64,000 bases of DNA from Bryobacterales bacterium F-183 (GCA_016865505.2 AP025252.1:3038001-3102000), one strand, 5' to 3'; numbered from the stretch's first letter, positions 38,465 to 56,029 are shown. A program made the numbers and translations. The notes: a model not told the origin generated them from the sequence alone.

Positions 38465-41400
38465 ATGAAACACTTCTCCACGGGCGGGCGGATTCTGGCG
38501 GCAGTGACGCTTCTTGCAAGCCTTGCACTGTCTCCAACCGCTCAAGCCCAAGTCTTGTACGGGAGTGTGGTCGGTACGCTGGAAGATGCATCCGGCGCCG
38601 CCATTCCCAATGTCAATCTCGTTCTGACCAACACGGCGACTGGCAAAATCTACGAAGACAAAACCGACGGAACCGGCCGCTACGCGATCGGCAACGTTAT
38701 TCCCGGCACCTACGATCTGAAGGCATCGGCCACTGGCTTTAAAGCGTTGTCCCGCACCGGCCTGAACGTGACGGCGAACACCGTTACGCGTCAGGATCTC
38801 ACCATGCAGGTCGGCTCGCTGACCGAAGAAGTGACGGTCTCCGCGGACGCCACGCAACTGCAGACGGACAAGTCCGATACCCACACCGAACTGAGCGCCA
38901 AGCAGGTAGCAAGCCTGCCGCTTCCCGGCTACCGCAACTACCAGAGCCTGATCAATCTGGTTCCTGGTGCGACCCCGGCTGCGTTCCAGAACTCGGCCAC
39001 GGACTCCCCGGGCCGTTCGCTCCGTACCAATATCAACGGCACGAACGCCAACAACAACACTACGCGTATCGACGGCGCCGCCAGCGTCAACCTCTGGCTG
39101 CCGCACCACGCTGGTTATGTGATGCCGGCCGAAATGGTGGACGTTGTGAACGTCACCACGACGGCTCCCGACGCGGAACAGGGAATGGCGGGCGGCGCGG
39201 CCGTTACCGTTCTCACCAAGTCCGGCACCAACGAATTCAAGGGCAGCGCGTTCTGGTTCCATGACAACCAGCACCTCAAGGCCCGCAACTTCTTCCAGCC
39301 GGTTGGCGTGGAGCAGCCCCTGAGCATCTACAACAACTACGGCGGAACGATTGGCGGCCCGATCGTGAAGAACAAGCTGTTCTTCTTCTATAGCTTTGAC
39401 GGCACCAAACAGCGCACCGGCGCGACGGCGTTCTACTCCGTCCCGACGGCTGATATTCGCACGGGCAACTTCAGCGCCTATCCGACCGCGATTTTCGATC
39501 CGGCGACCGGCGATCAGACGACCGGCCAGGGCCGTACGCAGTTTGCGGGCAACATCATTCCGGCGAGCCGCATTTCGGCGCAGGGTGCTCGCCTGATGAG
39601 CTACTTCCCGCTGCCGACTCGCGAAGGCGCGCAGAACAACTTCTTTGCTGCGGCCACGCCGAAGTTTGACCGCGACTACAACGATCTGAAGATCAACTAC
39701 AACCGTACGACCAACCACTCGATGTACTTCCGCTGGGGCCGTATGGACGCACTTGTCGGTGGCGTTGGCGCCTTCGGCGACGCGATCGGCGGCGCTCCCG
39801 GTTCGGACCCCGGTCTGGGCGACACCAAGGTCAAGAACATGTCCTTGGGCCACACCTGGACGCTTTCGCCGAGCATCATCCTGGACGGCGTGATCGGTTA
39901 TCAGCGTCAGGACCAGGTGGTTCGCGGCAACGACTTCGGTAAGGACTTCAGCACCGTCCTGGGCATCCCGGGTATCGGTGGTTCCGACCCCCGCGAGCAG
40001 GGCTTCCCGAACATCTCCGTTTCGGGCTACACCGGCTTTGGTGTTCCCGGCTGGATGCCACTTGAGCGCATTGAGCAGAACTACACGATGAGCCACAACC
40101 TCAGCGTGATCAAGGGCGCTCACGAAATGCGTTTCGGCTTTGACGGTACGAACTATCGCATGAACCACTGGCAGCCGGAACTGGGTGCTGGTCCTCGCGG
40201 CGCCATCAACTTCACCGGTGGCACCACGTCGGCGGGCGTCTTCAACCTGTACAACGCTGCGGGTGCGTTGCTGCTCGGTCTGCCGAATCAGATGCAGAAG
40301 AGCATCCAGTACATTCTGATGACGCCGCGTGAATATCAGTTCGGTATCTACGCGCGTGATCGCTGGCAGGTGAACAAGAAGCTGACCGTGAACCTTGGTC
40401 TGCGCTGGGAATACTATCCGTTGATGACCCGCGCCGGCGGCAAGGGCATCGAGCGGTTGGATGCCGAAACCAACCAGGTGTTCCTGGGCGGCCGCGGCAA
40501 CATCCCGGTGGACAACGGCATCACGGTGAGCAAGCGTCTGTTTGCTCCTCGCGTTGGCATCGCCTACCGCATGAACGACAAGACGGTTCTGCGCACCGGT
40601 TACGGCATCAGCTACGATCCGCTTCCGTTCTCGCGTCCGCTCCGCGGCTTCTATCCGCTGACGGTGAACTTCAACTTTGTTGCTCCGAACGAACTGCTGC
40701 CGGTTCGTACGCTGGCGCAGGGCATCCCCGCCGTGTCCGGTCCGGACATCAGCTCGGGTGTCGTGAATCTGCCGAACGTGGCCGATATGCGTACGCCGTA
40801 CAAGGGCCAGATCAATCGCGGTTACACGCAGAGCTGGAACTTCACCCTGGAACGCAACCTGCCGCAGAACATTGTCGGTACGCTAGCGTATGTGGGCACC
40901 CAGTCCACCAACCTGCTGGCTGACCTGGACATCAACGCCGCCACCTCCATCGGGTCCGGCGCTGCTGGCCGTCCGTACTTCTCGCGCTTCAACCGTTCCA
41001 TCGCCACCAACCTGTGGGATGGTTACCTGAGCAGCAACTATCACTCGCTCCAGAGCAGCCTGCGCAAGTCCTTTTCGAAGGGCCTGATGTTGCAGGGCGC
41101 CTACACCTACTCGAAGGCCATCAACATGACCGACGAAGACGGTTGGGCTTCTGTGACCTGGAACTATCTTCCCGCTTTCGGCCGCAACCGCGCCGCTGCC
41201 GGTTATGACCGCCGCCACGTCTTCCAGATGGGCTGGCTGTATGACCTGCCGATGGGCAAGGGCCACGCGTTTGCATCGAGCGGAGTTCTGTCGCACATCC
41301 TGGGCGGCTGGTCGGTTTCCGGTATTGCATCTGCCTACACCGGTACGCCGTTCACGCCGTCGGCTCCCGCAGGCACGCTGAACACCCCTGGTATCGCCAC

Positions 41401-41764
41401 GCAGACTCCGGATCAGATCAACCCGAACGTAACCCGTATCGGCGATGTGGGTCCGGGCACCCGCTTCTACGACATCACCGCCTTCCAGGCTCCGGTCGTA
41501 GCTCCGGGAACCTTCCGCATGGGCAGCATGGGCCGCAACTCGTTGCGCAACCCCGGCCGCGTCACGACGGATCTCTCGCTGGCGCGTACGTTCAAGATGG
41601 GCGAACGCTTCACGACGATGTTCCGCGCGGAAGCGTACAACTTCACGAACACCGGGCAGTTCACCGGGTTTGCCAGCGCCAACGTTGCGGACCCGAACTT
41701 CTTGCGCGTGCTGAGCGCCACTGGCGAACGCCAGGTACGCTTTGGCCTGCGTCTCGGGTTCTAA
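38465..41764 (+). CDS. TonB-dependent receptor, Oar-like, with carboxypeptidase-regulatory domain
   Basis: A 1099-residue outer-membrane protein. A signal peptide (LAAVTLLASLALSPTAQAQ) precedes a Cna-B/carboxypeptidase-regulatory domain (about residues 30-115, with GSVVGTLEDASGAAIPNVNL and GRYAIGNVIPGTYDL). Then comes a plug domain (NGTNANNNTTRIDGAASVN, VLTKSGTNEFKGSAFWFH) and a long beta-barrel ending QVRFGLRLGF, a C-terminal aromatic typical of BAM substrates. This Oar-like architecture is greatly expanded in Acidobacteria and is thought to take up large oligosaccharides or peptides. No TonB box was identified. Base use is balanced, unlike its flanks, perhaps because of high expression. Confidence 0.95.
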   Translation: MKHFSTGGRILAAVTLLASLALSPTAQAQVLYGSVVGTLEDASGAAIPNVNLVLTNTATGKIYEDKTDGTGRYAIGNVIPGTYDLKASATGFKALSRTGLNVTANTVTRQDLTMQVGSLTEEVTVSADATQLQTDKSDTHTELSAKQVASLPLPGYRNYQSLINLVPGATPAAFQNSATDSPGRSLRTNINGTNANNNTTRIDGAASVNLWLPHHAGYVMPAEMVDVVNVTTTAPDAEQGMAGGAAVTVLTKSGTNEFKGSAFWFHDNQHLKARNFFQPVGVEQPLSIYNNYGGTIGGPIVKNKLFFFYSFDGTKQRTGATAFYSVPTADIRTGNFSAYPTAIFDPATGDQTTGQGRTQFAGNIIPASRISAQGARLMSYFPLPTREGAQNNFFAAATPKFDRDYNDLKINYNRTTNHSMYFRWGRMDALVGGVGAFGDAIGGAPGSDPGLGDTKVKNMSLGHTWTLSPSIILDGVIGYQRQDQVVRGNDFGKDFSTVLGIPGIGGSDPREQGFPNISVSGYTGFGVPGWMPLERIEQNYTMSHNLSVIKGAHEMRFGFDGTNYRMNHWQPELGAGPRGAINFTGGTTSAGVFNLYNAAGALLLGLPNQMQKSIQYILMTPREYQFGIYARDRWQVNKKLTVNLGLRWEYYPLMTRAGGKGIERLDAETNQVFLGGRGNIPVDNGITVSKRLFAPRVGIAYRMNDKTVLRTGYGISYDPLPFSRPLRGFYPLTVNFNFVAPNELLPVRTLAQGIPAVSGPDISSGVVNLPNVADMRTPYKGQINRGYTQSWNFTLERNLPQNIVGTLAYVGTQSTNLLADLDINAATSIGSGAAGRPYFSRFNRSIATNLWDGYLSSNYHSLQSSLRKSFSKGLMLQGAYTYSKAINMTDEDGWASVTWNYLPAFGRNRAAAGYDRRHVFQMGWLYDLPMGKGHAFASSGVLSHILGGWSVSGIASAYTGTPFTPSAPAGTLNTPGIATQTPDQINPNVTRIGDVGPGTRFYDITAFQAPVVAPGTFRMGSMGRNSLRNPGRVTTDLSLARTFKMGERFTTMFRAEAYNFTNTGQFTGFASANVADPNFLRVLSATGERQVRFGLRLGF

Positions 41765-50369: not shown

Positions 50370-50870
50370 CTATTGTGCCGGAATCTCGACGGACTTGGCA
50401 TGGCGCCACAGGCGTTCGAGTTCGTAGAACTCACGGGACTTGGGCGAGAAGACGTGCACCACCATGTCGCCATAGTCGGCGAGCACCCATTCGGCGTTTT
50501 TGAAGCCTTCTAGCGAGGTCGCCTTTTCGCCAGCCTTGGCGAGTTGGATGTCGATCTCTTCGGCGATCGCCTGGACCTGGCGCGGGTTGGAGCCCGTGCA
50601 GATCACAAAGAAGTCGGTAAACGAGGTGACCTCGCGAAGGTCGAGTACCTGGATGTCGATGGCCTTCTTGGATTCGGCGGCGCGTACGGCGATGAGCCAG
50701 TTGGCGGCGGACTCCTTGGCAGGCGCAGGCGCCGCTGCGGCTGGTTTGGTTTTTGCCGGAGCCGGTGATGCGGCCGCTTTGCGTGCGGCCTTTACTGCAG
50801 TCGAAACTTTCTTAGCCGCAGTCTTTTTGACTGCTCGCTTTTTCGTTGTCGCGATCTTCTTGGTTGCCAA
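50370..50870 (-). CDS. rsfS: Ribosome silencing factor RsfS with Lys/Ala-rich extension
   Basis: A 166-residue protein. Residues about 55-166 are the RsfS/Iojap domain: AAESKKAIDIQVLDLREVTS, FTDFFVICTGSNPRQVQAIA, EWVLADYGDMVVHVFSPKSR and FYELERLWRHA. It binds uL14 on the large subunit and blocks subunit joining in starvation. The first ~55 residues are unusual: repeated K-K, A-A-K-K and P-A-P-A-K motifs resembling histone H1-like tails, absent from typical RsfS of about 105-120 residues. It starts only 29 bp from the divergent ThyX-like gene. Confidence 0.93.
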   Translation of the reverse strand: MATKKIATTKKRAVKKTAAKKVSTAVKAARKAAASPAPAKTKPAAAAPAPAKESAANWLIAVRAAESKKAIDIQVLDLREVTSFTDFFVICTGSNPRQVQAIAEEIDIQLAKAGEKATSLEGFKNAEWVLADYGDMVVHVFSPKSREFYELERLWRHAKSVEIPAQ

Positions 50871-50899
50871 ACTTACAGGGTACTATTGTGAGATTCACC

Positions 50900-52324
50900 A
50901 TGTCAGAACGACAGCGAAGGGTGCTGACCGTGGCCCCGATGCCCGCGGAGAAATGCGCCTACGCGTTAGCACGCTATAGCCGGTCGCCGGATTCGATTGC
51001 GAAGTCCTTGGAATGGGTTCGCACACACGACGAATCCAAGTTTTTGGACAGTTTCTACTTCCAGTACGGGCATGCCTCGATTGCTGATCTTGGGCATGTC
51101 GTGCTGTGTTTTGAAGGCGTGTCGGAACTGGCTGCGACCGAACTCGAAGACGAACAGCTTTGGGATGGGCAGGCGAGATCGTCGCGGTATCAGGATTTTG
51201 GGTCGTCGGGCTTCATCACGCCGCCTGAGCTGGAGGGCAATGCGCTTTATGCCGAAACGGGTACCGCGCTGTTGGCGGCGTATCGCGAGATGCATGCTCG
51301 CGCGGTGGAGCATCTGACGGAACGGCTGCCTCGGCCTGAGGCGATGAAGCCTGACGCTTATCAGCGCAACATCGCGGCTCGGGCGTTTGACATCGCGCGG
51401 TACTGCTTGTTTTGGGGGATCCCGACGGGCGTGGGTCAAGTGACGAGCATTCGTACCCTGGAGCGGCAGATCCGGCGGTTGAAGACGTCGGAGTACGCCG
51501 AGGTGCGGGATCTTGGGGCAGAGGCCGCTACGGCTTGCCAGGAACCTGCTGCCGTGACGTTGGACGGTACGCCTGCGACTGTGCCGTTTGCGCCTACTTT
51601 GGCGAAGTATGTCGACGCTGACGAGCATGTGCTGCAATCGCGAGCGGATGTCGCGCTGTGGGCGGCGCACAACATCCCAACGTCTTTAAACGCGAGTGTC
51701 CCGGATGTGGATCTGCTGGAGCCACGGTGTCCGGAGTCCGACATCGCGGCGACGCTTGTGTATCCTTCGGCAACGATTCCGTATCGCGCGCTGCTGACGT
51801 TCTTTGAAGATCATGCCGGGCTGCGGCGCGACGTAATCGATACGGCGTTACGGTCTCGCAAGCGTCGCGACGATTTGCTGCGGGAGTTTCGTGGCGGGCC
51901 GTTTGTGTACGACATTGTGATGGACATCGGCGCGTATCGCGATTTGCACCGGCACAGGCGTTGCCAGCAGTACCGGCAGGCGTACGGTACGCACTTGGGG
52001 TACGCCAAGCCGGATGCCATTGCACAGGCTGGCCTGCTAGAGTTGTACAGCGGAATTATGGAACGCACGTTTAGCGCGATCGAGCAGTTGCCCGCGCCGG
52101 GCTCGCACTACCTGCTTCCGTTTGCCGCCAACGCCAGGTTTCTGTTCAAGATGGACTTTGCCGAGGCCGAATACATCAGCCGCTTGCGAAGCGGCGTTAA
52201 GGGACATTTCAGCTACCGCCGCATAGCATGGGAAATGAAACGCAAGATGGAGTCTTTGCGCCCGGAACTGGGGCGTCTGATCGAGGCGACTCCACCCGAA
52301 GAAGAAGATCCTCTTCAGAGATAA
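50900..52324 (+). CDS. Double-domain ThyX-like protein
   Basis: A 474-residue protein made of two ThyX-type domains (about 1-245 and 260-470). ThyX enzymes carry F-x-x-x-G-x-S-R ... R-H-R-x-x-S-x-N-E-x-S-x-R-Y. Domain 1 keeps the later half (ARSSRYQDFG) and the FEGVSEL start but has no RHR. Domain 2 keeps YRDLHRHRRCQQYRQAYG with the RHR but has glutamine where the serine should be. Each half thus holds part of the flavin/dUMP site. It may be a pseudo-dimer with one active site, or have a new role. Start chosen at MSERQRRV (50900). Confidence 0.8.
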   Translation: MSERQRRVLTVAPMPAEKCAYALARYSRSPDSIAKSLEWVRTHDESKFLDSFYFQYGHASIADLGHVVLCFEGVSELAATELEDEQLWDGQARSSRYQDFGSSGFITPPELEGNALYAETGTALLAAYREMHARAVEHLTERLPRPEAMKPDAYQRNIAARAFDIARYCLFWGIPTGVGQVTSIRTLERQIRRLKTSEYAEVRDLGAEAATACQEPAAVTLDGTPATVPFAPTLAKYVDADEHVLQSRADVALWAAHNIPTSLNASVPDVDLLEPRCPESDIAATLVYPSATIPYRALLTFFEDHAGLRRDVIDTALRSRKRRDDLLREFRGGPFVYDIVMDIGAYRDLHRHRRCQQYRQAYGTHLGYAKPDAIAQAGLLELYSGIMERTFSAIEQLPAPGSHYLLPFAANARFLFKMDFAEAEYISRLRSGVKGHFSYRRIAWEMKRKMESLRPELGRLIEATPPEEEDPLQR

Positions 52325-52332
52325 TCAACGTC

Positions 52333-54156
52333 ATGATGCTGGGCGGCGTCCGGAATCCTTTCCAACTGCAGTCCATCGCGGACCCATGGTCGCGCGTGGA
52401 CTCTGACGTATCCGCGCTCTATCAGGCCCTGCTGGACCAGGCGGCCGATTTGATTGTCGCGGTGCAGTTGCGGTCGCAGACGTCGTGTTTGTTGATCGAA
52501 GGTGAGTCCGGGGTCGGCAAGACGCATTTTTCTGCACGATTTCGGGCGCATGTGCTCGATCGCGAAGAGCCATCGTACTTCTTCAGCGTGCCGTGCGAGG
52601 TAGCGCCGTCGCGCATCTGGCGGCATTTGCGGCAGTGCATGGTGGATTGCCTGTTGCGGCAGGGTCCGCGAGGTACGACACTGCTCTCGCGGTTGATTGG
52701 GCAACGCGATCTGGCTGCGGCGAGCGCGACGATCAGCTACAACCTGGCGACCGTGTTGGGGCATTATCGCGCCGACCATTACCGGGCGTGGTGTACGGCT
52801 TGGTTGCGTGGTGAGCCGTTGCCGGACAAAGCCACGGCGAAGTTGGAAGTGTCCGAGACGCGCGGCAACGATCGCGAGTTGGAAGAACAATCGCGGCAGG
52901 TGGTGCTGGAGTTGGCGCGATTGGCATCGCCGGGTGTGGCCGTGTTTTGTTTTGACCGGATAGAGGCGCTTGAGTACTATCCGGGGAGCACGGAAGGTCT
53001 GGCAGCGTTTGAAACGATGTTTCTGGACCTGGCGCAGTCCCTTGCCAATGGTTTGATTCTGAGTTGCCTACAGCCTGGGTTTGTGGCAAAGTTGCCTCCT
53101 GCATTGAAAGAGGCGATGGCGGAGAACCGGGCTTTGCTGAAGAAGGTCGGGCCAGAGCAAGCAGAGTATTTGCTGCGTACGGCAATGGATTGGGAACCGC
53201 AGATTGGGGTGGCGCGTACGCGAGAGTCCGGGCATACCCTGTGGCCGTTGCCAGCGGAGTTCCTGACGGAGTTGGGTACGCCAGCACCTTGGACGCCGCG
53301 CTACCTGCTGGCGAAGGCAGAGCAGGCGTTTGAGACGTGGCGAAGTCCTGCGGCGGTGGCGGGTACGGCGGATGTACGGGCGTTTTTGGAGTCCGAGTAC
53401 GTGCAGCGGCTGGAAGCTGGGTTAGCGAATCCGGCGCTGGATTCCGATGCTGTATTTTTAGCAGCGATGCCGGTGCTGCTGGCTCCCCAGGGGCGCAGGG
53501 GTACCTTTACGCGGGAGCATCCGTCGATCGACTTTACAGTCGAGACGCCGGGCGCGCCGATTGCAGTTTGCATGGTGAACCAGGTGCATGAGCCGGACGT
53601 CGCACAGCGGCTGCGCGAGATTTCGGACACCTGGAATGCGCGCGAGTTTGCGCGCCTCCGGCTGGTGCGCGATGCGCGGTTGCCGTTTCATGGCGGTGGG
53701 AAGCCGGCGCAAGAGGCGCTGAAGGGTTTGCGTACGCGAGGGGCGAAGCTGGTACGTCCGTCGACGGAGGCGATTGCGGCTTTGGAGGCCGCGCGGAGTT
53801 TGTATGCGGATGCGCAGACGGGCCATCTGTACGAAAAGAGCGGCGAGGCAGTGGCGCCGCAGGCCGTACTAGACTGGTTGTCCAAGCATGCGCCGTTGAT
53901 CTTGCAGGAACTCGCGTCCGAGGTGTTGGAAACCGGAAGTGAAGATACGCAGTTTGCAGGTGGCTTGCTCGAATACCTGCAAAAGAAGTCGATTGTGAAA
54001 TTAGAAGATGCCGCCGATGCTGTTGGGGCTTCGGCGGAGGAAGTCGCAGCCTATGCGCGTAGTCATCCCTCTCGAATTGGATACCTTGCCGGACCGCCAC
54101 AGGTCCTCTTTCATCCGGTTGCTGCAAGGGCTCGGCCTGAAGTTACAGCGGACTGA
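52333..54156 (+). CDS. P-loop ATPase of unknown function, partner of the FtsK-like gene
   Basis: A 607-residue protein. Walker A is IEGESGVGKTHFSARF near residue 57, and Walker B-like VAVFCFDRIEALEYYPG near residue 215. N-terminal NPFQLQSIADPWSRVDSDV resembles the opening of KAP/STAND-like or BREX-type ATPases that bind a regulated partner. The middle is helical (QAEYLLRTAMDWEPQIG), and the C-terminus looks like winged helices (QFAGGLLEYLQKKSIVKLED, VGASAEEVAAYARS). The family is not recognised. It overlaps the next gene by 104 bp in another frame. Starts at 52333 or 52336 are both possible. Confidence 0.78.
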   Translation: MMLGGVRNPFQLQSIADPWSRVDSDVSALYQALLDQAADLIVAVQLRSQTSCLLIEGESGVGKTHFSARFRAHVLDREEPSYFFSVPCEVAPSRIWRHLRQCMVDCLLRQGPRGTTLLSRLIGQRDLAAASATISYNLATVLGHYRADHYRAWCTAWLRGEPLPDKATAKLEVSETRGNDRELEEQSRQVVLELARLASPGVAVFCFDRIEALEYYPGSTEGLAAFETMFLDLAQSLANGLILSCLQPGFVAKLPPALKEAMAENRALLKKVGPEQAEYLLRTAMDWEPQIGVARTRESGHTLWPLPAEFLTELGTPAPWTPRYLLAKAEQAFETWRSPAAVAGTADVRAFLESEYVQRLEAGLANPALDSDAVFLAAMPVLLAPQGRRGTFTREHPSIDFTVETPGAPIAVCMVNQVHEPDVAQRLREISDTWNAREFARLRLVRDARLPFHGGGKPAQEALKGLRTRGAKLVRPSTEAIAALEAARSLYADAQTGHLYEKSGEAVAPQAVLDWLSKHAPLILQELASEVLETGSEDTQFAGGLLEYLQKKSIVKLEDAADAVGASAEEVAAYARSHPSRIGYLAGPPQVLFHPVAARARPEVTAD

Positions 54157-56029
54157 CCCGGTCTCGCTGCCAGCCTCGCGCGTTCGCGCGGAAATCTCGG
54201 GAGTCGCGGAAGGCGCATGGCGCGCCGGCGGGTCCAACGCGCTGCTCAATCAGGTATTTCGGGATTCGTTTGCAGATCTGTTTACCGCGACGCACGAGGC
54301 GCGCTGGCAACGGGTACTGACACCGGCGGATCTGGAAGATCCGTCGATACTCGCGCATCATGTGTACCAGGAGTTGGCCGGTCCCAGGTTGATTCGTCAG
54401 CAGGCCGCGCTACAGGAGTTTTCGCAGGAACTGCTCAACTTTTGGGAAGCCGTACAGAGCCTGTGCGCGTGGTTCTGCGGCGTGCTGCGCGCAGCGCTGG
54501 CGAACAAGCACATCCGGTACGACGAGTTCACCTGTTACTGGATCAATGTGGACAGCCTGGTGCGTCCGGAGCGTGATTTGTACTGGACGGTGAACGACCC
54601 ATCGTGGTCCGCGCCGGTACGGATTGAGGGCCGTCCGGGTACGGCATTGCGGATGCCGGGGTCCGAAGACTGGTTTGTACTGGAGACGCAGTTGAGCGGC
54701 GCTTCTGCCGAGGCGGATCAGGCCAAGGCTTGCCTGCATTATGGTTTGTTGACGGCGGCTGCCGCGGGTACGGGCAGCGTGTCGATGCTGACGTTTCATC
54801 CCGAGGTGCGGGAGAAGCGGTTTGCGGCGGAAGAGGCGGAGCCTGCGCTGAAGGTACTGAAGCCGATCATCGGGCGCCTGGCTGGTGTGTCGTTATCGCC
54901 GAGTGCGAATGTCACGGCCCCTCGCGTTGCGGTGGTAGAGGAACCTGCGTCGGCGACGTCCACATCAGGCGAAGAGAATCCAATCCATCAGGCGATGTAC
55001 AAGGTGCTGGCTTCGTGCCGTTTGATGGGCGCGAATGTACATGTGGTGGGGCAGCCGATTGCGGGGTGTGCGTTTCTGCGGTTTGTGCTAGAGCCTGCTC
55101 GCGAGATCCCTGCGAAGAAGGTGGAGAGCCTGCTGCTGGACATGCGCGTACGAATGGAGTTGAGCGCGTTGCCGGTGTTGATGCGTCGCGGCGAGCAGGT
55201 TTGGCTGGATGTACAGCGCAAGGACCGTCAGCCGGTATTGTTCAGCGAGATTCGCGACAAGATCCTGCCGGGCGATGCGTCGTCGCGGGTGCCGATTGGC
55301 GTGGATACCAACGGGGTGCTGCGGTCCCTCGATTTGTCGAACCCGCTGCATGCGCATGTGCTGGTGGCGGGTTGCGACGGGTCCGGCAAGACCGAGTGGC
55401 TGCGCGCCGCAATTGCCGGACTGCTGGTAGCGAATACACCGGAAACGTTGCGTCTGGCGCTGGTGGATCCCACGGGTACATCGTTTGCGGACTTGAAGGA
55501 TTCGCCGTTTTTGTATCGTGCGCCGGGTGGTTCGGATTCTGTGATCGACACGCTCGATTCGCTGATCGCCGAGATGGAGAACCGGCAACGCATGCATCAG
55601 AAGGCGCATGTTGACGACTTGCGGCAGTACATGGATAAGACGGGCGAGAAGCGGCATCGTATTGTGTGCGTGATGGACGAGTACGCTGTGCTGGCAAGTA
55701 CGGGCGGCGGCAGGAAGTCCCGCAGAGAGATTGATGCGCGGATCGCAAGGCTCGGGGCAAGAGGTCGTGCGGCGGGGATACACATGATGGTTGCGACGGG
55801 GCAGATCAATCGCGACGTGATTGGCGGCGCGCTGCAAGCGAACATGACCTGTCGCGTGGTGATGCGCACGAACAATGCGATTGAATCGCGGCTGCTGTTG
55901 GGTGTGAGCCGTGCCGAAGGGCTGCTGAATAACGGCGATCTGCTGTTTCAGGACATCCAGGATCCGGTGCGGTTGCAGGCGCCGTTTTTGACGGAGCGCG
56001 AGCGGCAGACGATCTTCGCCGGAAGCTAG
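54053..56029 (+). CDS. FtsK/SpoIIIE-like DNA translocase domain protein
   Basis: A 658-residue protein. The last ~230 residues form an FtsK/HerA-type motor: Walker A VAGCDGSGKTEWLRAAIA, Walker B RIVCVMDEYAVLAS, then RLGARGRAAGIHMMVATGQ and TCRVVMRTNNAIESRLLLG, typical of FtsK. The N-terminal ~400 residues are of no recognised family and lack membrane helices, and there is no DNA-reading gamma domain, so this is not chromosomal FtsK. ATG at 54053 is chosen for GGAGG 12 bases upstream; an earlier in-frame ATG is at 54008. The pairing with the upstream ATPase suggests a two-motor DNA-processing machine. Confidence 0.82.
   Translation: MRVVIPLELDTLPDRHRSSFIRLLQGLGLKLQRTDPVSLPASRVRAEISGVAEGAWRAGGSNALLNQVFRDSFADLFTATHEARWQRVLTPADLEDPSILAHHVYQELAGPRLIRQQAALQEFSQELLNFWEAVQSLCAWFCGVLRAALANKHIRYDEFTCYWINVDSLVRPERDLYWTVNDPSWSAPVRIEGRPGTALRMPGSEDWFVLETQLSGASAEADQAKACLHYGLLTAAAAGTGSVSMLTFHPEVREKRFAAEEAEPALKVLKPIIGRLAGVSLSPSANVTAPRVAVVEEPASATSTSGEENPIHQAMYKVLASCRLMGANVHVVGQPIAGCAFLRFVLEPAREIPAKKVESLLLDMRVRMELSALPVLMRRGEQVWLDVQRKDRQPVLFSEIRDKILPGDASSRVPIGVDTNGVLRSLDLSNPLHAHVLVAGCDGSGKTEWLRAAIAGLLVANTPETLRLALVDPTGTSFADLKDSPFLYRAPGGSDSVIDTLDSLIAEMENRQRMHQKAHVDDLRQYMDKTGEKRHRIVCVMDEYAVLASTGGGRKSRREIDARIARLGARGRAAGIHMMVATGQINRDVIGGALQANMTCRVVMRTNNAIESRLLLGVSRAEGLLNNGDLLFQDIQDPVRLQAPFLTERERQTIFAGS

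What the first reader, a model, noticed from the sequence alone, without database searches (positions are those of the whole stretch)
52333..56029. Two overlapping ATPase genes: an unassigned P-loop protein and an FtsK-like motor
The first gene encodes a P-loop protein with winged-helix-like end. The second starts 104 bp inside it in another frame with its own GGAGG site, and ends in an FtsK/HerA-type motor without membrane or DNA-reading domains. Such a long overlap implies strict co-translation. Paired regulatory ATPase and translocase are typical of DNA-processing or defence systems, but neither N-terminal region matches a known system, and no nuclease gene lies next to them. This is the strongest candidate here for an undescribed molecular machine.
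Basis: partly seen in the sequence, partly recalled or inferred. Interest (0 to 1): 0.65.

Follow-up and report, generated by a model that had tools for sequence, protein, structure and literature searches.

The report
FtsK-ATPase invader trap, nuclease site lost
Two overlapping genes encode a relative of a predicted bacterial machine that seizes and cuts invading DNA, but in this genus the cutting site has been erased while the protein is still tightly conserved, so it has probably been turned to a job that does not cut DNA.

Summary
Gene A (52333-54156) and gene B (54053-56029) overlap by 104 bp, and B has a GGAGG site. The pair is not undescribed. A is an Orc/CDC6-type AAA+ ATPase with a restriction-enzyme-like insert and a winged-helix end. 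B is a RecB/Cas4-type PD-(D/E)XK domain joined to an FtsK alpha+motor. This is the Orc/CDC6 class of 'HerA/FtsK capture' anti-invader systems predicted in NAR 2024 (PMC10853773). I recovered 71 loci with A next to B, in at least five phyla; three are fused, and 58 have a winged-helix gene C directly upstream.

What is new: in the window genome and its only congener held, B has lost the nuclease motifs (G66N, H70R, D196G, K213Q, Q225K, Y229H), gene C is absent, and the motor's sensor-1 glutamine is gone (Q583G). Those motif residues are (nearly) invariant in 71 other B sequences. Yet B is under strong purifying selection (dN/dS 0.063; nuclease domain 0.041; neighbouring thyX 0.059) and sits at a fixed locus behind thyX. 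The tree shows a long stem, then short tips.

Best reading: a defence machine that lost its nuclease and was kept for a non-cutting, DNA-binding or scaffolding role. The function is inferred, not shown.

The parts
52333..54156 (+). Gene A (P0001, 607 aa): Orc/CDC6-type AAA+ ATPase with restriction-enzyme-like insert and C-terminal winged helix; start may be 52336
   Evidence: AF2 model pLDDT 89, pTM 0.83; Foldseek top hits Orc4 and Cdc6/Orc1; Walker A GESGVGKT and Walker B FCFD intact
52420..53202 (+). AAA+ ATPase domain of A (about residues 30-290)
   Evidence: AAA_16 3.1e-05 over residues 47-212, below Pfam's cut-off; ORC/Cdc6 structures
53443..53820 (+). Restriction-enzyme-like, apparently inactive insert of A (about residues 371-496)
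   Evidence: Predicted helix-strand-strand-helix-strand-helix-strand-helix, no D-ExK in the family, at the place where PMC10853773 puts the iREase; inference from topology
53944..54117 (+). C-terminal winged helix of A (about residues 538-595)
   Evidence: Predicted H-E-H-H-E-E
54036..54040 (+). GGAGG ribosome-binding site of B, inside A, 12 nt before the B start
   Evidence: Sequence
54053..54156 (+). 104-bp overlap of A and B
   Evidence: same or similar overlap in several Bryobacterales relatives
54053..56029 (+). Gene B (P0002, 658 aa): dead PD-(D/E)XK domain fused to FtsK alpha + motor
54230..54907 (+). Former RecB/Cas4-type nuclease domain of B (about residues 60-285), catalytic residues lost
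   Evidence: Full-length homology to relatives with Pfam PDDEXK_1 3.2e-11 and 2.6e-11; motif table; deviations G66N H70R D196G C208F K213Q L223Q Q225K Y229H; dN/dS 0.041
54989..56026 (+). FtsK alpha domain and motor of B (about residues 313-658); Walker A GSGKT and Walker B DE present, sensor-1 Q583 changed to G
   Evidence: FtsK_SpoIIIE 3.7e-24; Foldseek FtsK motor, TM normalised by target 0.69-0.81 for the 17 best hits
50846..52324 (+). thyX (flavin-dependent thymidylate synthase) ending 8 bp before A; takes the place that gene C has in relatives
   Evidence: Thy1 9e-24; same order in the congener

Best explanation
A and B descend from an Orc/CDC6-coupled 'HerA/FtsK capture' system. In the ancestral, working form (inferred): protein C (tandem winged helices) and A (AAA+ with winged helix) recognise DNA and load B; B forms an FtsK-type ring that pumps double-stranded DNA past its own PD-(D/E)XK nuclease domain, which cuts the invader. 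In the window's genus, gene C is gone, the nuclease active site has been erased and the motor's sensor-1 glutamine replaced. Both proteins are kept as folded and constrained parts at a fixed chromosomal site behind thyX. The machine therefore probably still assembles on DNA but does not cut it, acting as a DNA-binding, road-blocking or scaffolding complex. Shown: homology, conserved pairing, loss of the motifs, loss of C, purifying selection, synteny. Inferred: assembly, DNA loading, the non-cutting role and the defence role of the ancestor.
For: Family: A matches ORC/Cdc6 structures. B has FtsK alpha + motor, closest in PADLOC to the SspH C-terminus, plus a domain that in relatives is RecB/Cas4-like. 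71 loci have A next to B and three are fused; C lies upstream in 58. The architecture matches PMC10853773 section 22, including the optional wHTH gene and the fused exonuclease. Inactivation: in the 71 other B sequences G66, H70, K213, Q225 and Y229 are invariant and D196 is 99%; window and SZAS-8 lack all six, with identical replacements. The window departs at 17 of 74 conserved columns, against a median of 1 and a maximum of 11 elsewhere. Retention: dN/dS of B 0.063, of its nuclease domain 0.041, of thyX 0.059. Stem 1.38 then tips 0.04/0.13, pair support 100/100. Synteny on both sides is shared with the congener. No C-like gene in either genome.
Against: The new role has no direct evidence. 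Only two species show the inactive form and one (SZAS-8) is a fragmented MAG. Its A is cut by a contig end and has lost the Walker A threonine (GKM) and the Walker B aspartate, which could mean slow decay of A rather than reuse. The nuclease domain of B in the model is less certain than the motor. A non-canonical active site cannot be excluded by sequence.
Confidence: 0.6

Rival explanations
1. The pair is still an anti-invader system in this genus, with the cutting done by another nuclease in trans, or with DNA blocked or pumped rather than cut.
For: Walker A and B of both ATPases are intact in the window copy. All parts of B remain under selection. Other defence systems use separate nucleases with HerA motors (established knowledge; e.g. 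PMC11291478, seen as title and abstract).
Against: No nuclease gene seen beside the pair; recognition gene C not found in the whole genome; sensor-1 glutamine of the motor lost; stable chromosomal synteny rather than a mobile or defence-island setting.
Confidence: 0.2
2. A dying relic: the system was disabled and is drifting towards loss.
For: Loss of C, of the nuclease site and of motor residues; the congener's A shows Walker A and B losses and only 73% identity.
Against: Both species keep open frames where sequence is available. B dN/dS 0.063, about the same as thyX (0.059) and below the aminotransferase (0.107). The dead domain is the best conserved part of B.
Confidence: 0.15
3. B still cuts DNA through a rearranged active site.
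For: E211 of the ExK motif is retained, and a fold with charged replacements (H70R, Q225K) persists.
Against: The metal-binding aspartate, the lysine and the motif I histidine are all gone. I did not search for a replacement acidic cluster.
Confidence: 0.05

Closest known systems
Orc/CDC6-coupled 'HerA/FtsK capture' systems (PMC10853773, NAR 2024)
   Same: Orc/CDC6 AAA+ with insert and C-terminal wHTH; REase-fold + FtsK alpha + FtsK motor; optional wHTH gene; optional fused 3'-5' exonuclease in cyanobacterial relatives
   Different: Window copy has no active REase, no wHTH gene C, an altered motor sensor-1 and a fixed place behind thyX
DndFGH / SspFGH
   Same: The motor of B and its relatives is closest in PADLOC to the SspH C-terminus (3.2e-32 for P0002, 8.5e-68 for P0003); three-part plan of ATPase, wHTH protein and nuclease-motor
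   Different: No 1700-aa DndH with helicase-like, TRD and methyltransferase-like domains; no DndF or DndG match in NCBIfam or PADLOC
Housekeeping FtsK/SpoIIIE
   Same: Alpha and motor domains
   Different: No membrane domain, no gamma domain; the genome has a separate FtsK in a 905-aa frame at G000:C1:3518060
Cas4/RecB-type nucleases
   Same: Fold and motif order in relatives; the Pseudanabaena form also has Cas4-like cysteines
   Different: Catalytic residues absent in the window copy; the cysteine cluster is not seen in the acidobacterial forms aligned
BREX-related capture (BRC) systems (PMC12839542)
   Same: ORC/Cdc6 ATPase together with a HerA/FtsK motor
   Different: No PglZ, BrxA-like or BrxB-like gene seen beside the pair

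Membership tests
Orc/CDC6-coupled HerA/FtsK capture system | Orc/CDC6 AAA+ ATPase | tested here: met
   Foldseek of the A model: Orc4, Cdc6/Orc1 among the top hits, E about 1e-5
Orc/CDC6-coupled HerA/FtsK capture system | Inactive REase inserted between AAA+ and wHTH | tested here: inconclusive
   Right place and a compatible order of helices and strands, no D-ExK; no profile or fold match was obtained for this stretch alone
Orc/CDC6-coupled HerA/FtsK capture system | Active REase | tested here: not met
   Motif residues intact in about 70 relatives, lost in the window copy; the paper lists it as a usual core domain
Orc/CDC6-coupled HerA/FtsK capture system | HerA/FtsK motor (with FtsK alpha in one set) | tested here: met
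Orc/CDC6-coupled HerA/FtsK capture system | wHTH at the end of the ATPase | tested here: met
   Predicted secondary structure of residues 538-595
Orc/CDC6-coupled HerA/FtsK capture system | Extra gene with 2-4 wHTH domains (only in a subset) | tested here: not met
   No match in G000 or G001, matches in four same-family genomes
Orc/CDC6-coupled HerA/FtsK capture system | Restriction of invading DNA | not testable with these tools
   Predicted by the paper's authors; no assay
DndFGH / SspFGH | Large DndH with MTase-like, TRD and SNF2-like domains | tested here: not met
   P0002 matches only the last 300 residues of SspH
DndFGH / SspFGH | DndF and DndG partners | tested here: not met
   No NCBIfam or PADLOC match to them for A or C
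RecB/Cas4-type PD-(D/E)XK nuclease | G..H, D, ExK, QxxxY motifs | tested here: not met
   N, R, G, ExQ and KxxxH in the window copy
Housekeeping FtsK | Membrane-spanning N-terminus and gamma domain | tested here: not met
   Domain scan and model; a separate FtsK is present

The most novel reading that the evidence does not exclude
A DNA-destroying invader trap was domesticated in one acidobacterial genus: after losing its nuclease and DNA-recognition subunit, the ORC-like ATPase and FtsK-like protein became a fixed, non-cutting chromosomal complex, perhaps expressed with thyX and acting on the cell's own DNA.
Probability: 0.4. Interest if true: 0.65.

Novelty: new variant of a known kind. Interest (0 to 1): 0.5.

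Why it matters
HerA/FtsK capture systems of the Orc/CDC6 class are, as far as I found, only a prediction (PMC10853773). This work adds 71 paired loci across at least five phyla with a consistent C-A-B order and three A-B fusions, which support a single complex. It also shows a lineage where the effector was switched off but the machine was kept. That is a natural separation-of-function case: it suggests the ATPase-motor part has a selectable role without cutting. It also gives natural active and inactive versions for asking whether the motor alone blocks DNA.

Tried and rejected
NCBIfam, PADLOC and Pfam on the two window proteins alone gave only generic AAA hits for A and FtsK for B; the nuclease only appeared through relatives. 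Phylum-wide search with full B is swamped by housekeeping FtsK and cannot be read as presence of the pair. Plasmid search found one true member (Pseudanabaena pPSE7367.01, H1); one further hit that I opened (H18) is FtsK-like by motor only, and the rest cover only about half the query. Viral contigs gave two weak motor matches, not examined. A direct Foldseek match for the nuclease domain was not obtained because the FtsK motor fills the list. An empty-site comparison was not possible: in other genera thyX does not have these neighbours. The idea that L010 and L011 lack C was dropped: C is there but was hidden by the ORF choice; the same script flaw makes the count of 58 a lower bound. Housekeeping FtsK and DndFGH membership were considered and rejected (see membership test). 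L125-L128 match by motor only and are not in the pair counts.

Full report
Observation. A is 52333-54156 and B 54053-56029, both on the + strand, overlapping by 104 bp, with GGAGG at 54036-54040. In the host genome (6.28 Mb, 4 contigs) the pair is single copy, and a separate housekeeping FtsK exists. The nearest genes are thyX upstream and a GNAT gene, an LD-carboxypeptidase and an aminotransferase downstream; the Pfam scan of ten neighbours (one without a match) showed no nuclease, methylase or other defence gene.

What the proteins are. B ends in an FtsK/SpoIIIE motor (Pfam 3.7e-24). With relatives, a profile reaches the FtsK structures over the alpha and motor domains (2e-86), and the AF2 model (pLDDT 83.5) matches the FtsK motor with a TM-score (normalised by target) of 0.69-0.81 for the 17 best hits. 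The N-terminal half of B is homologous along its length to proteins in which Pfam sees PDDEXK_1 (3.2e-11 in a cyanobacterial plasmid protein, 2.6e-11 in a same-family acidobacterium); in the cyanobacterial one NCBIfam and PADLOC see Cas4 (2e-06; 5e-07). A gives only weak AAA hits by sequence, but its model (pLDDT 89, pTM 0.83) finds human Orc4 and archaeal Cdc6/Orc1 among its best structural matches. It ends in a winged helix, and between the two lies an alpha/beta insert without a D-ExK motif.

The family. Including loci found in related genomes and on a conjugative plasmid of Pseudanabaena, A lies next to B in 71 loci including the window, from Acidobacteriota, Planctomycetota, Myxococcota/Thermodesulfobacteriota, Verrucomicrobiota and Cyanobacteriota among others. 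In three (L060, L077 Minicystis rosea, L124) A and B are one protein. Directly upstream of A, in at least 58 of the 71, is a fast-evolving gene C whose profile matches winged helices of SelB and, weakly, LexA. Many cyanobacterial B proteins carry an additional N-terminal 3'-5' exonuclease (L098: DNA_pol_A_exo1 2.4e-32; also by alignment L086 and L123).

Known or not. This composition is what PMC10853773 (section 22) calls a HerA/FtsK capture system of the Orc/CDC6 class: Orc/CDC6 ATPase, inactive REase before the C-terminal wHTH, active REase, HerA/FtsK with FtsK alpha, a subset with a 2-4 wHTH protein and others with a fused 3'-5' exonuclease. A 2026 paper refers to it again (PMC12839542). 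I found no experimental paper on this class in the library searched. The defence role of the family is therefore a prediction.

What is unusual here. In a motif table of 74 B rows, the RecB/Cas4 signature (G..FH, D, ExK, QxxxY) is intact in nearly all, but the window copy and SZAS-8, the only other species of the genus held (G001; its gene appears as L073 and L129), read N..FR, G, ExQ, KxxxH. Over 74 columns conserved in at least 93% of the 71 other B sequences, the window departs at 17; the median of the others is 1 and the highest 11, the latter in a broken gene (L065). Eight of the 17 are in the nuclease domain (G66N, H70R, D196G, C208F, K213Q, L223Q, Q225K, Y229H), all shared with SZAS-8. 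The motor also lost the sensor-1 glutamine (Q583G, both species) and a lysine (K474T, window only); Walker A and B remain in the window copy. Naming Q583 as sensor-1 follows the description of this residue in PMC10853773 and the position after the strand-4 ATQ motif. Gene C is absent from both whole genomes and found in four same-family genomes by the same search.

Selection. Between the two species B is 87% identical with dN/dS 0.063, and its former nuclease domain 90% with 0.041; thyX next door gives 0.059, the GNAT 0.068, the aminotransferase 0.107 (Nei-Gojobori, synonymous sites near saturation, so the ratios are rough). A (first 401 residues, all that the sister contig holds) gives 0.114. 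A tree of the motor domain alone puts the two together (100/100) inside the non-cyanobacterial group on a stem of 1.38 changes per column, with tips of 0.04 and 0.13. That is a burst followed by constraint, though the exact attachment of the stem is weakly supported (83/70), and a stem of this length also reflects missing intermediate species. Genes on both sides are in the same order in both species; outside the genus thyX does not have these neighbours.

Mechanism. For the family (inferred): C and A recognise and load onto DNA, B's FtsK ring moves double-stranded DNA and its PD-(D/E)XK domain cuts it. For the window genus (inferred): the complex no longer cuts. Loss of the metal-binding aspartate and the lysine, with arginine and lysine put in place of histidine and glutamine, would fit a pocket that binds DNA without cleaving. 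Since the congener's A has also lost Walker residues (GKM, FCFH), even ATP hydrolysis by A may be dispensable, which points to a scaffold or a road-block. The alternatives are a trans-acting nuclease, slow decay, or a non-canonical active site; the selection data speak against decay of B.

Membership. By descent the pair belongs to the Orc/CDC6 capture class; it fails the usual core feature 'active REase', so I file it as a derived variant and not as a working member.

Limits. Two species only, one a fragmented MAG; the iREase in A rests on topology and position; the nuclease part of the B model is less certain than the motor; no assay exists for any member that I could find.

Noticed in passing
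L017:364-1482 (-), G408 contig C17: In a distant acidobacterial member the A-B pair is followed directly by a gene whose product reads as DinB (DNA polymerase IV) by eye; a damage-response link would be worth checking.
   Followed up: no
L113:10624-12123 and related genes in 17 loci: In many cyanobacterial loci a protein with an HSDR_N-like start (HSDR_N_2 1.8e-07) and a ParA-like ATPase lies within a few genes of the system.
   Followed up: partly
L087, L119, L097: Some cyanobacterial loci hold two copies of A (with a second C in L119) beside one B, so ATPase/recognition subunits may be duplicated in tandem.
   Followed up: no
L124:5095-8136 (+): SAR324 member: A fused directly to the FtsK part with no PD-(D/E)XK domain found by Pfam, possibly an independent loss of the nuclease.
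   Followed up: no
L012:4498-5724 (+): The congener SZAS-8 A has GKM in Walker A and FCFHQ in Walker B, so its ATPase is probably inactive, if the MAG is right.
   Followed up: partly
window 38465-41764 (+): Large 1099-aa ORF with a distant homologue (27%) downstream of the system in SZAS-8 (L073:5786-9097); unrelated to the pair as far as seen.
   Followed up: no
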